From NCBI GenBank assembly GCA_017398945.1, contig JAFQES010000014.1, forward strand, positions 1-64,000: a DNA stretch of 64,000 bases, read 5' to 3'. A program made the translations under genes and the position numbers. The notes beneath the pieces were generated by a model that was not told where the DNA came from, did not search any database, and was given only the letters and a program-made list of their open reading frames with translations. How positions within the stretch are numbered: the stretch's first letter is position 1; each line of letters begins with the position of its first letter. Origin of the DNA: Bacilli bacterium. Its GTDB lineage: Bacteria > Bacillota_I > Bacilli_A > RF39 > UBA660. Of this stretch, positions 11,229 to 15,010 are shown piece after piece.

Positions 11229-11816
11229 ATGAAAACAAAGGATGTTATAGTCTTTATTTTAAATAACAATTTAGTTGTAAAGAAAGATGAGAAGATAGAA
11301 AAATTAGAACTAGATTCCAAAATTATGAAGTATGGAAGAATCAATGACATAAAAGAATTATTTAAGTTATTTAATAAATCTTCTATCTTAAAAGCGAGTA
11401 ACAAAAAAATATTTAGTGATAATTTATATTTTATCTATTTTAGTGACTATACAGACTTAGAACTTAATACTTTAAAAACAACATTTAATGAATATGGTTT
11501 TGATAAAGTAAACCTAATTTGCTTTGCTAATTTATTAAAGTATCCAAGATTAACTATGTATCTAGTAAATGATATATCAAAATATTGTATTTATACTGTG
11601 GATAACTTTGAAGTTATTAACAGTGAATTATTTAAAAATATAGATGATTTAGTTCAATTCTTATTAAGAAAATATAAGTTTAAAGAGTTAATTTTAATAG
11701 ATAATAATCACTTGGATTATTTTAAGGAAGTAGAACAAAAATATAAGATAAAATGTTATGTTTTAGATAATGATGAAAATTACATTTTTAAATTATTTAT
11801 GGAGCGCAATTCTTGA
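11229..11816 (+). CDS. Hypothetical protein downstream of spoIIID
   Basis: 195 residues, no signal peptide or membrane span, rich in Lys, Asp and Asn. Short beta-strand-like runs alternate with helices (DVIVFILNNNLVV at the start, FKELILIDNN near 160), but no motif is recognised. It starts 12 bases after spoIIID and ends inside a terminator, so it is in the sporulation unit. The position equals that of mbl in B. subtilis, but no actin-type nucleotide site is visible, so equivalence should not be assumed. Confidence 0.6.
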   Translation: MKTKDVIVFILNNNLVVKKDEKIEKLELDSKIMKYGRINDIKELFKLFNKSSILKASNKKIFSDNLYFIYFSDYTDLELNTLKTTFNEYGFDKVNLICFANLLKYPRLTMYLVNDISKYCIYTVDNFEVINSELFKNIDDLVQFLLRKYKFKELILIDNNHLDYFKEVEQKYKIKCYVLDNDENYIFKLFMERNS

Positions 11817-11839: not shown

Positions 11840-11845
11840 TATAAT
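11840..11845 (+). promoter_or_regulatory. -10 element of the agrA-agrC promoter
   Basis: TATAAT at 11840-11845, about 30 bases before the first plausible agrA start. No clear -35 is visible, consistent with activator dependence. Confidence 0.45.
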
Positions 11846-11874
11846 TGCTATTAGTTAATATAGAAGAGTGGTTG

Positions 11875-12603
11875 GTGAAAAGTGTGATTAAGTTTGTAGT
11901 GGTTGACGATGAAGAAAGTTGTTTAAATAATGTCAAAGACATAATTAGAGAAGTAACCTTTAATTTGGAAGAAGAAGTTAAGATAGAAACTTTTACAAAG
12001 TATTCAAAAAAGTTAGAAAAAGAAATAAATAATGTTTCCGAAAGAAAAATTTATATTTTAGATATTCAACTAGACGATAAGTTCTCTGGAATTCAAGTGG
12101 CAGAAATGATTAGAAGTGTTGACTGGGAAAGTGAAATAATCTTTATGACTTATCATGATAAAATGTTTGAAACTGTTTACCGAAAGGTTTATGAAGTTTT
12201 TAGCTTTATTGAAAAATTTCACGACTTTCGCGAACGACTTAAAAAAGATTTAAAAACTATATTAAAGAAAAATTGTGATAACAAATTATTTGTTTATCAA
12301 AGTAGAAATGTTGATTTAAAAATTTATTTAAAAAATATTTTGTATATCTATCGAGATAAAGAAGAGCGAAAAGTTGTCATTGTAACTGATAATAATAAAT
12401 TTACGGTTGGACTTGGAGTTCAAGAAATATTAGAGTTTTTAGATTCATCGTTTGCTGTGGTTCATCGAGCTTGTATTGTTAATAAAACAAGAGTACAAAA
12501 GTATCATTGGACTGATAAATATTTTGTTTTGGATACAGGTGAAGAAGTAAATATGTTATCAAAGAAGTATAAGAAAGAAGTGTTATGTGGTAATGAGTGT
12601 TGA
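11875..12603 (+). CDS. agrA: LytTR response regulator, AgrA type
   Basis: 242 residues. Starts before 11875 would lie in or beside the -10, so GTG 11875 (or GTG 11884) is preferred. Receiver domain: VVVDDEE at the start, the phospho-acceptor Asp in YILDIQL near residue 60, and the conserved T/Y region IIFMTYHD. The LytTR DNA-binding domain (about 145-240) has SRNVDLKIYLKNILYIYRD and FAVVHRACIVNKTRVQKY. The family binds paired direct repeats and in agr systems activates agrBD. agrC follows with an 11-base overlap. Confidence 0.9.
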   Translation: MKSVIKFVVVDDEESCLNNVKDIIREVTFNLEEEVKIETFTKYSKKLEKEINNVSERKIYILDIQLDDKFSGIQVAEMIRSVDWESEIIFMTYHDKMFETVYRKVYEVFSFIEKFHDFRERLKKDLKTILKKNCDNKLFVYQSRNVDLKIYLKNILYIYRDKEERKVVIVTDNNKFTVGLGVQEILEFLDSSFAVVHRACIVNKTRVQKYHWTDKYFVLDTGEEVNMLSKKYKKEVLCGNEC

Positions 12604-13867
12604 GTTTGTGTTGTATAGTTTAGCAACTAGTGTTTGTTATTTTTGTACAAATTGGATATATGGGATATTATCAAAACAAAAGTTTAAACTTAATTTACCT
12701 ATAATTATATTAATTTTTCTTATGGGTACATTAAATACATATATTAATATGCATTTTTCTGTTTCTATTAAAATAGTATATAATTTAATATGTTATTGTA
12801 CTTTAACAAAATTGATTTATAAAGATGATATTAAAACTTGGTTATTTTATAGTTTGTTAATTTGGTCTGCTGGTAGTATGTTAGATATGTTATTTATGTC
12901 TGCAATTTCAGCACTATTGTTTTTTGTTTTAGATAGTATGCCTACAATAGCGATTCCATTTATAACTTTGTTATTACAAGTTGTATATAATTTTTTGTTT
13001 AGAATAAAATTTGTACAAAATTGGATAAATAAATTGAAAGAAAAAATTGAAAAGATTCCTAATATTGGGTGGATATATTTTATAGTAATAATTCTTTTGG
13101 TGTTATTTAGTACTTTAGCATTCAATAATATGAAAAATTTAACAAATGAAATAATGATATTATTTTTAGTTTTAATTGCAATCTCCATTAGTGTGCATTT
13201 AATACATTCTATATATTCAGAAAAAATATATAATGAAGCTTTAAAAAATTTGTTAAATAATAACTTGTATTATGTTGATCTAAATTCTAAAAACAGAATA
13301 TTTAAGCATAATATAATTCATAAATTAGATGGCGTTAAAACTGTTGCTAATGATAAGGTAAAGAAATTAGTTAACGATATTATAAAGGAATATAACTTAT
13401 CAAGTTTGCCAAATAAGGAAATAGATAATTTGCCTAATGGAATTAATGGTTTGATTTGTCAGAAAATTTATAGTAATAAAAGTAAAAAACTAAATTTTGC
13501 TATAAATAATTATTTAAAAAGTGATTTGTTTGAAATTTTAACCCCTAAAAATTATAATAAATTATGTGAAACTTTAGGTATTTGTCTAGATAATGCTATT
13601 AATGCATCCTTAAAGACAAAAGATAAGGTATTACAAATTGTTATTTTAGAAAATGATGATAACATTTTTATTAAAATCATCAATACTTTTAAATCGGAAA
13701 TAGAAATAGATAATTTAGGTACACTTAACTATACTACAAAGCGTGAAGGTCATGGTTTAGGACTATATTCGATTTTTATGAAAAAAGGAGTTAAAATTAA
13801 AACTTCCATTATTAATAATTTGTTTGAGAATCAGCTTATTATAAAAAAAAGAAAAGTTAAAGCATAA
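12593..13867 (+). CDS. agrC: Peptide-sensing histidine kinase, AgrC type
   Basis: About 424 residues. The start is ATG 12593 (GTG 12587 is possible), overlapping agrA. Six or seven membrane spans fill residues 1-205 and form the peptide sensor. The kinase part has a phospho-acceptor His in FKHNIIHKLDG (about 240) and a GHKL ATPase: N box LCETLGICLDNAINAS (about 327) and G box TTKREGHGLGLYSIF (about 385). This architecture, next to an AgrA-type LytTR regulator and a convergent agrBD, identifies an AgrC receptor. Confidence 0.9.
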   Translation: MSVEFVLYSLATSVCYFCTNWIYGILSKQKFKLNLPIIILIFLMGTLNTYINMHFSVSIKIVYNLICYCTLTKLIYKDDIKTWLFYSLLIWSAGSMLDMLFMSAISALLFFVLDSMPTIAIPFITLLLQVVYNFLFRIKFVQNWINKLKEKIEKIPNIGWIYFIVIILLVLFSTLAFNNMKNLTNEIMILFLVLIAISISVHLIHSIYSEKIYNEALKNLLNNNLYYVDLNSKNRIFKHNIIHKLDGVKTVANDKVKKLVNDIIKEYNLSSLPNKEIDNLPNGINGLICQKIYSNKSKKLNFAINNYLKSDLFEILTPKNYNKLCETLGICLDNAINASLKTKDKVLQIVILENDDNIFIKIINTFKSEIEIDNLGTLNYTTKREGHGLGLYSIFMKKGVKIKTSIINNLFENQLIIKKRKVKA

Positions 13868-13870
13868 AAA

Positions 13871-13900
13871 AATAATCACATTTATCGTGATTATTTTTTT
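13871..13900. terminator. Bidirectional terminator between agrAC and agrBD
   Basis: AATAATCAC pairs with GTGATTATT around a seven-base loop, with A and T runs on both flanks. It lies between the convergent ends of agrC (+) and agrD (-). Confidence 0.85.
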
Positions 13901-13909
13901 GACATTATA

Positions 13910-14026
13910 CTATAATAATTCTTGTGGACATTCAGGTTCGTCAAAAGCAAACATACATGTTTTGCTTGTTCCAGTTGATGCAACACCAGTAAATAGATTA
14001 GCTAATAAATTTGCAAAAAAACTCAT
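13910..14026 (-). CDS. agrD: Autoinducing peptide precursor AgrD
   Basis: 38 residues, found by translating the gap between agrC and agrB; ATG 14026 follows an AAGGAGG ribosome site. Residues 1-16 form the amphipathic leader (SFFANLLANLFTG). Residues 20-28 read TSKTCMFAF, and the acidic C-terminal recognition part reads DEPECPQELL, matching the D/E-x-P-E-x-P-x-E-L tail of AgrD families. By analogy with staphylococcal AIPs the signal would be a five-residue thiolactone ring, Cys24 to Phe28 (CMFAF), with a short N-terminal tail. A second Cys (33) in the tail is unusual. It lies 37 bases downstream of agrB. Confidence 0.93.
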   Translation of the reverse strand: MSFFANLLANLFTGVASTGTSKTCMFAFDEPECPQELL

Positions 14027-14063
14027 AATTACCTCCTTTTATTCTAGTTTAAATATATTTAAA

Positions 14064-14669
14064 TTAATTTAAACCTTTTTTATAGTTTATATAATTATTA
14101 AATGGTGTTTTTGTTATCTTATAAAGAAGTGGACATATGCAACTTCCTTCTAACACCAAACTTAAAAATAATGCATTTAGTATAGTTGTATCATTCGAAA
14201 AATAGATTATTGGATAATACATAGCAATGATTACTAATGATTTAATCTTTAATTTTCTTCTTTTTTCTACTTTGATAATTGGCCTTTTAGGAGTATCAGC
14301 TGGTGCCCATAAAATAAAGAATACTGCAGTTATCATCCATGTGATTGCAATTATAAATTTAGGAATTGCTAGGTATTTTATAAATATTGAGCCGCCGATA
14401 TATATTGTTATAGTTGATATCCAGCATGCTATATTGCTTGAAGCGTGAATACCGAATGCATATGTTCTAAGTAATGCATAAAATATTAACAATAGTAAAA
14501 ATTCTTTTGTAGTACCTATAATAATGGATATTAAAAATACAACTAATGTTTTAGTGATTAATGTATATATGCATTCCATTCCATAACGATATATTTTTAA
14601 ATCTGTTTCACTACATACTTTATTCTTTTTTATTAAAGTAACTGTATTATTTATGATTTGCTCTTTCAT
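14064..14669 (-). CDS. agrB: Accessory gene regulator B, AgrD-processing membrane protease
   Basis: 201 residues with about five or six membrane spans. AgrB is a cysteine endopeptidase that cuts the AgrD C-terminal tail and helps export the thiolactone peptide. The catalytic His-Cys pair is visible in FGIHASSNIACW (about residues 74-83), with the usual six intervening residues. The N-terminal helix and length fit the family. The ribosome site is GGAGGT. agrD follows on the same strand. An inverted repeat sits in its leader. Confidence 0.93.
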   Translation of the reverse strand: MKEQIINNTVTLIKKNKVCSETDLKIYRYGMECIYTLITKTLVVFLISIIIGTTKEFLLLLIFYALLRTYAFGIHASSNIACWISTITIYIGGSIFIKYLAIPKFIIAITWMITAVFFILWAPADTPKRPIIKVEKRRKLKIKSLVIIAMYYPIIYFSNDTTILNALFLSLVLEGSCICPLLYKITKTPFNNYINYKKGLN

Positions 14670-14698
14670 ACTACCTCCGCAAACTAAATAATTTATTT

Positions 14699-14722
14699 AT
14701 CAAAGTTTTTGTTTACTTTGAT
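14699..14722. repeat. Inverted repeat in the agrB leader
   Basis: ATCAAAGT-TTTTGTTT-ACTTTGAT, an 8-bp perfect stem with an 8-base spacer, 30 bases upstream of the agrB start. A TATAGT-like -10 (reading on -) lies just upstream. It could be an operator or an RNA hairpin in the leader. Confidence 0.5.
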
Positions 14723-14898
14723 GAACTAACTATACAACATAAAATAATTTAATAACCAAAAATTTCCTTTAAAGATTATTTTTGTATTTGAAACTTGTAA
14801 TTAATAATTTTGGGTTATGTTAAAAAGTTGTTTTAGACATAAAACTGATATTTTGAAACAATTTAACTTGAAATTTTTTTGTCATTCGTTATTATGGT

Positions 14899-15010
14899 AA
14901 AGTCCCCTGCAGACAGGATGTAAGAAGCGAATTTTGTCGACTGGTATTATTTGCTTCTTAAAAAGTAGTTGTGGTAAGTTATAGATGTAAGAAGAAGGAG
15001 AGGTGGAATT
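14899..15010 (+). promoter_or_regulatory. Structured 5' leader of the cold-shock gene with alternative pairings
   Basis: The segment GATGTAAGAAG occurs twice (14917-14927 and 14984-14994). GCTTCTTA (14953-14960) can pair with the first copy (TAAGAAGC, 8 bp) or with the second (TAAGAAG, 7 bp), which runs into the AAGGAG/AGGTGG ribosome site. The two pairings are mutually exclusive, so the leader could switch between ribosome-site open and closed states, as E. coli cspA does with temperature. A separate CCTG-CAGA-CAGG hairpin lies near 14905. Confidence 0.6.

What the first reader, a model, noticed from the sequence alone, without database searches (positions are those of the whole stretch)
11840..14722. 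Complete agr locus in convergent halves with an uncatalogued-looking AgrD
All four agr parts are present, but split: agrAC on + and agrBD on -, meeting at one bidirectional terminator. In Staphylococcus the order is a single agrBDCA operon. AgrD (38 residues) lies in a gap and could be missed by gene callers. Its predicted signal is a Cys24-Phe28 thiolactone ring CMFAF. A second Cys in the DEPECPQEL recognition tail is odd, because it could compete in processing.
Basis: partly seen in the sequence, partly recalled or inferred. Interest (0 to 1): 0.7.

Follow-up and report, generated by a model that had tools for sequence, protein, structure and literature searches.

The report
Convergent agr quorum-sensing locus, family-wide
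This is a complete, apparently working bacterial cell-to-cell signalling system of the agr type whose two halves face each other, an arrangement (and a spare cysteine in the signal precursor) shared by a whole family of small-genome, mostly uncultured bacteria, so it is a lineage-wide variant of a known system and not a one-off oddity.

Summary
agrA-agrC (+) and agrB-agrD (-) converge on an A/T-rich hairpin; AgrB, AgrC, AgrA and AgrD all match known families, and the catalytic residues are intact. The AgrD is not uncatalogued: it scores 41 bits against TIGR04223 (cut-off 19). The two "odd" features are ordinary for the lineage. In 120 of 120 related loci with agrD and its adjacent agrC visible, the halves converge, usually beside csp-hpf-secA. 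The tail Cys recurs at the same position in 43 of 124 relatives. Between the window and its sister species (flanks 94-99% identical) divergence is confined to the AgrC sensor (39% amino-acid identity), AgrB and the AgrD ring codons. AgrA, the promoters and the AgrD leader are 97-100% identical. This is the signature of agr specificity groups and supports a live signal-receptor pair. The ring needs a caveat. Relatives place the nucleophile (Cys 100, Thr 9, Ser 6) six residues before the tail; that position is Thr23 in the window. Thr23 (ring TCMFAF) cannot be excluded, because the window's clade repeatedly has Thr there with no ring Cys. Best reading: new variant of a known kind.

The parts
11840..11845 (+). 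TATAAT, candidate -10 of the agrA-agrC promoter (no good -35); just downstream of the hairpin and T-run that end the preceding gene
   Evidence: sequence; the stretch is 100% identical in the sister species
11884..12603 (+). agrA: response regulator with LytTR DNA-binding domain, 239 aa from GTG 11884 (longest ORF starts TTG 11845)
   Evidence: Pfam Response_reg and LytTR over cut-off; phospho-acceptor Asp (residue 73 of the 252-aa ORF) invariant in 103/103 relatives
12593..13867 (+). agrC: sensor histidine kinase, 424 aa from ATG 12593 (GTG 12587 also possible); N-terminal half is the divergent sensor
   Evidence: HATPase_c_5 over cut-off; S. aureus AgrC 4bxi/6e52 match; His241 (426-aa numbering) invariant 109/109
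13865..13901 (.). 15-bp A/T-rich hairpin with A/T runs on both sides, candidate bidirectional terminator between agrC and agrD
   Evidence: fold z -5.5 (+) and -4.6 (-); stem kept in sister species
13910..14026 (-). agrD: 38-aa signal precursor MSFFANLLANLFTGVASTGTSKTCMFAFDEPECPQELL
   Evidence: TIGR04223 41.2 bits, cut-off 19
13943..13957 (-). codons of Cys24-Phe28 (CMFAF), most likely thiolactone ring
   Evidence: spacing to DEPE as in S. aureus AIP-1 (PMC12312760); Cys24 kept in sister species
13958..13960 (-). codon of Thr23, the family-aligned ring-nucleophile position; alternative lactone ring TCMFAF
   Evidence: column is Cys/Ser/Thr in relatives with six-residue spacing; nine relatives have Thr here and no ring Cys
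13928..13930 (-). codon of Cys33 in the DEPECPQELL recognition tail
   Evidence: Cys at the same tail position in 43 of 124 relatives
14064..14669 (-). agrB: membrane cysteine protease that trims and cyclises AgrD, 201 aa
   Evidence: PF04647 122.6 bits; His75 and Cys82 invariant in 125/125 relatives
14699..14722 (.). inverted repeat ATCAAAGT-N8-ACTTTGAT upstream of agrB; unproven operator or leader hairpin
   Evidence: arms identical in sister species while the loop differs by one base; fold z only -1.5

Best explanation
This is a functional agr-type peptide quorum-sensing system. AgrB cuts the DEPECPQELL tail off AgrD and lets a ring nucleophile, most likely Cys24, attack the resulting acyl-enzyme to give a thiolactone ring CMFAF with a short N-terminal extension. 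After the leader is removed, the exported peptide binds the sensor half of AgrC, which phosphorylates AgrA to change transcription. The signal-making operon (agrB-agrD) and the sensing operon (agrA-agrC) have separate promoters at the outer ends and stop against each other at the hairpin. Signal production and sensing can therefore be set independently, which a single agrBDCA operon does not allow. The agrC-agrD-agrB block forms one contiguous specificity cassette flanked by constant agrA. The layout is ancestral to the sampled family. Shown: gene content, layout, intact catalytic residues, family-wide conservation, localised divergence. Inferred: cleavage site, ring chemistry, terminator, separate promoters, autoinduction and regulon.
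For: Family matches for all four proteins. Catalytic AgrB His/Cys invariant in 125/125, AgrA Asp in 103/103, AgrC His in 109/109. Convergent layout in 120/120 family loci with agrD and adjacent agrC visible, with the csp-hpf-secA and spoIID-M23-spoIIID flanks widely shared. Window versus sister species: AgrC sensor 39% aa identity, pN 0.35; AgrB 88.6%; AgrD ring codons 71% nt; against AgrA 99.2% aa, AgrD leader 100% nt, agrA promoter 100% nt and flanks 94-99% nt. Synonymous divergence is raised in agrC/agrB (pS 0.50-0.55) over neighbours (0.01-0.26), which fits exchange of old alleles. This parallels the S. aureus agr hypervariable region (PMC12312760).
Against: No expression, peptide or reporter data. 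No AgrA binding site was identified, so autoinduction is assumed. The five-residue ring is found only in the window and its sister; 115 of 124 relatives have a six-residue spacing. The hairpin was not called by the terminator scan.
Confidence: 0.85

Rival explanations
1. The peptide ring is a six-residue lactone closed by Thr23 (TCMFAF), with Cys24 a free thiol inside the ring, as the family alignment would place it.
For: Across 124 relatives the residue six before the tail is the nucleophile in 115 (Cys 100, Thr 9, Ser 6) and is Thr in the window and its sister. The same-genus species G002 has Thr there and no ring Cys (STETFLFSW|DEPECPDELI, L074), as do the other non-Cys members of the window's 17-row AgrB clade (SH-aLRT 96). 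Six-residue rings exist in clostridia (PMC12312760).
Against: S. aureus AIP-1 has the same Thr-Cys order (YST[CDFIM]) and cyclises on Cys (PMC12312760). A thiol is the better nucleophile, and Cys24 is kept in the sister although neighbouring ring residues changed.
Confidence: 0.2
2. The tail Cys33 matters in processing, for example by competing for the acyl-enzyme or by pairing with an AgrB cysteine.
For: It recurs at one column (43/124) and co-occurs with Thr ring residues (10 of 11 Thr rows).
Against: The column also holds Met, Ala and Thr freely and the Cys state changes at least 17 times on the AgrB tree. No AgrB Cys column clearly tracks it. The Thr association is mostly one clade; independent pairs are too few to test. 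The tail leaves with the C-terminal cut.
Confidence: 0.1
3. The locus is a decayed or silent remnant, and the convergence is an assembly or rearrangement accident.
For: It comes from a draft genome in 35 contigs; no expression data.
Against: All genes open; identical layout and place in many independently assembled genera; strong constraint on AgrA and localised variation in the signal and sensor.
Confidence: 0.03

Closest known systems
Staphylococcus aureus agrBDCA
   Same: Same four protein families, AgrB His/Cys pair, AgrD plan (amphipathic leader, ring, acidic tail), Thr-Cys at the ring start as in AIP-1, and a hypervariable agrB/agrD/agrC region.
   Different: One operon in S. aureus; here two convergent operons with agrA before agrC; an RNAIII equivalent was not looked for; tail carries Cys; the AgrC sensor end lies more than 0.6 kb from agrD with the kinase part between, so a matched exchange must span all of agrC.
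Clostridioides difficile agr2 (written agrACDB or agrB2D2C2A2)
   Same: Gene order A-C-D-B with agrA and agrC reported as one unit and agrA first (PMC3754575).
   Different: The text read does not state the direction of agrDB; its authors favoured a single transcript. Its reported ring starts with Ser (PMC12312760).
Clostridium acetobutylicum agrBD + agrCA
   Same: Signal and sensor genes in two transcription units; six-residue ring [CVLVTL], the spacing seen in most of this family (PMC12312760, PMC3754575).
   Different: Written with agrC before agrA. Its strand arrangement was not checked.
TIGR04223 AgrD family cyclic lactone autoinducer peptide
   Same: The window AgrD matches over almost its whole length, 41.2 bits, cut-off 19.
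   Different: Tail Cys and the Thr/Cys choice at the ring start are features of this lineage; the non-family AgrDs read lack the tail Cys.

Membership tests
agr quorum-sensing locus | AgrB membrane cysteine protease with catalytic His and Cys seven residues apart | tested here: met
   PF04647 122.6 bits; His75 and Cys82 invariant in 125/125
agr quorum-sensing locus | AgrD precursor with amphipathic leader, ring nucleophile and acidic Pro-containing tail next to agrB | tested here: met
   TIGR04223 41.2 bits, cut-off 19; PF05931 22.5 bits, just under 22.7
agr quorum-sensing locus | AgrC histidine kinase with membrane sensor and GHKL ATPase | tested here: met
   PF14501 over cut-off; S. aureus AgrC structures match; His invariant. 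Sensor membrane topology not predicted
agr quorum-sensing locus | AgrA response regulator with LytTR DNA-binding domain | tested here: met
   Response_reg and LytTR over cut-off; phospho-acceptor Asp invariant
agr quorum-sensing locus | Secreted cyclic peptide activates the cognate AgrC | not testable with these tools
   Only indirect support: divergence confined to ring, sensor and AgrB
Staphylococcal-type agrBDCA operon | Four genes in one direction in the order B-D-C-A | tested here: not met
   BD on -, AC on +, agrA first
NCBI staphylococcal equivalogs (quorum_RR_AgrA NF046049, HisKinAgrCStaph NF046015) | Score over the curated cut-off | tested here: not met
   35.5 of 400 and 30.6 of 500 bits: homologous, not staphylococcal orthologues by that standard

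The most novel reading that the evidence does not exclude
The lineage that includes the window makes autoinducing peptides closed as threonine lactones: nine relatives, including a species of the window's own genus, have Thr and no Cys at the ring position with an intact AgrB. The window's own Thr23-Cys24 pair sits at the switch between a six-residue Thr lactone and a five-residue Cys thiolactone.
Probability: 0.45. Interest if true: 0.6.

Novelty: new variant of a known kind. Interest (0 to 1): 0.45.

Why it matters
About 64% of sampled genomes of this family (123 of 193) carry AgrB despite genomes of about 1-1.5 Mb, so peptide signalling appears to be a widely kept trait in a mostly uncultured lineage. 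The fixed convergent layout separates sending from listening, and it turns agrC-agrD-agrB into a natural specificity cassette whose exchange can be followed between species. The Cys/Ser/Thr switching at one ring position is a set of natural experiments on AgrB ring chemistry; a Thr lactone would widen the known AIP chemistries beyond Cys and Ser.

Tried and rejected
Tail Cys as a lineage oddity: rejected by its frequency and free alternation with Met/Ala. AgrB cysteine partner for it: Fisher tests over AgrB columns gave only weak, clade-confounded associations. Tail Cys with Thr ring as a functional link: not testable, too few independent pairs. AgrA-binding motif upstream of agrB: k-mer enrichment found instead TTCGACA, the reverse complement of the Spo0A box, lying nearer to csp; no AgrA motif was found. 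Selection bias from choosing loci by AgrD: checked by also fetching loci chosen by AgrB alone, among 40 more; same layout. Assembly accident: rejected by 120/120 loci. One extra, codirectional agr locus exists in G077 (L096), so the rule is for the family-type locus. Literature: no Thr-ring AIP and no described convergent agr locus in the papers searched and read; the library is partial, so absence is weak evidence. C. difficile agr2 strand orientation could not be settled from text.

Full report
What is there. The window holds a complete agr locus: agrA and agrC on +, agrD and agrB on -, tail to tail. All four proteins match their families, AgrC's nearest solved relatives by sequence are S. 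aureus AgrC kinase structures, and agrB and agrD have clear ribosome sites. agrA most likely starts at GTG 11884, not at the TTG of the longest ORF, because a TATAAT lies at 11840-11845 and overlaps that TTG. The 37-base hairpin between the halves folds well on both strands (z -5.5 and -4.6) and keeps its stem in the sister species. Calling it a bidirectional terminator is reasonable but inferred, since its stem is A/T-rich and the consensus scan did not list it.

Is the AgrD uncatalogued? No. It misses the staphylococcal Pfam model by 0.2 bit but exceeds the cut-off of the NCBIfam model TIGR04223 by 22 bits, so standard annotation has a model that finds it.

The layout is the family rule. Searching the window's family (193 genomes, 148 genera) gives AgrD in 91 and AgrB in 123 genomes. 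I fetched loci chosen by AgrD and then loci chosen by AgrB alone, and called the four genes with iterated HMMs. In all 120 loci where agrD and the neighbouring agrC are both visible, agrC points at agrD; where agrA is visible it is normally upstream of agrC on the same strand. Most loci lie beside csp-hpf-secA, and where the contig reaches far enough many have spoIID, an M23 peptidase and spoIIID on the other side. This points to vertical inheritance of one ancestral locus. Loci sampled from other families of the class that show an agrC near agrD are codirectional (11 of 11 by my reading). One relative (G077) has a second, codirectional agr locus (L096).

The tail cysteine. Cys occupies the same tail position (DEPECP) in 43 of 124 relatives, alternating mainly with Met and Ala, and changes at least 17 times on the AgrB tree. 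No AgrB cysteine clearly tracks it. It is therefore a tolerated tail residue in this lineage.

Evidence that the system is live. At the agrA/agrC border identity drops abruptly from about 96% to 60%, stays low through agrC (sensor 39% amino-acid identity, kinase 77%), recovers to 100% over the AgrD leader after falling to 71% over the ring codons, and is 85% in agrB before returning to 97% in its promoter. AgrA is 99.2% identical. Both replacement and silent changes are raised in agrC and agrB, which suggests exchange of long-separated alleles under diversifying pressure, not only fast point mutation. This is the pattern of agr specificity groups known from S. aureus (PMC12312760). Because the sensor end of agrC is far from agrD in this layout, the variable block spans all of agrC, agrD and most of agrB.

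The ring. Aligning on the acidic tail, relatives carry the nucleophile six residues before it: Cys 100, Thr 9, Ser 6; seven have Cys one residue earlier; only the window and its sister have Cys one residue later, preceded by Thr. All 124 have Cys, Ser or Thr available there, which argues that the Thr forms are functional and not decayed. AgrB His/Cys are intact in all of them. The window sits in a 17-row clade (support 96, quick tree) where Thr and Cys alternate, next to a Thr-only species of its own genus (L074). Ser lactones and six-residue rings are known (PMC12312760); I found no report of a Thr lactone AIP in the library searched, which is partial.

Caveats. The AgrB tree is a quick tree with many weak branches, so clade statements are provisional. 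Cleavage site, ring size, leader removal, autoinduction and regulon are inferred. Host, habitat and formal family name of the window are not known; the sister record is titled Bacilli bacterium from goat rectum. Whether a convergent agr locus has been described elsewhere could not be settled; C. difficile agr2 has the gene order A-C-D-B (PMC3754575) with strand not stated in the text read.

Verdict. What looked peculiar is a family trait. The points of real interest are the fixed convergent layout in a small-genome lineage, the clean specificity cassette between two sister species, and the Cys/Ser/Thr switching at the ring position.

Noticed in passing
window 14670-15010 and homologous agrB-csp gaps: TGTCGAA (Spo0A-box-like) sites are about 25-fold enriched in the agrB-csp gap of relatives (1.66 versus 0.067 per kb), sometimes in tandem at 10-bp spacing and about 85 bp upstream of csp; the window has TTTTGTCGAC (6 of 7) there, and its genome encodes Spo0A. 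They may control csp-hpf more than agrB.
   Followed up: partly
window 11229-11816 +: A 195-aa gene between spoIIID and agrA with no family match over cut-off, found only in the sister species among fetched loci, and with almost no silent divergence there (pS 0.01 against 0.13-0.26 in most neighbours).
   Followed up: no
L066, L070, L100, L116, L126, L182, L184, L065: Several family loci carry two or more tandem agrC genes or fragments facing one agrD; others have two agrD genes (L041, L050, L177). Possible multi-signal or multi-receptor variants.
   Followed up: no
L074, L117, L125, L127, L174, L183, L188, L197, L200: AgrDs with Thr and no Cys at the ring position, eight of nine with the tail Cys.
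   Followed up: partly
upstream of agrA in many relatives: A recurring TATGGTAATAT-like -10 and a TTAAC-N5-GCAAA element just after it; function unknown.
   Followed up: no
L096 (G077): A second agr locus with B, A and C on one strand and a high-scoring AgrD, so some members appear to have an additional, codirectional system.
   Followed up: no
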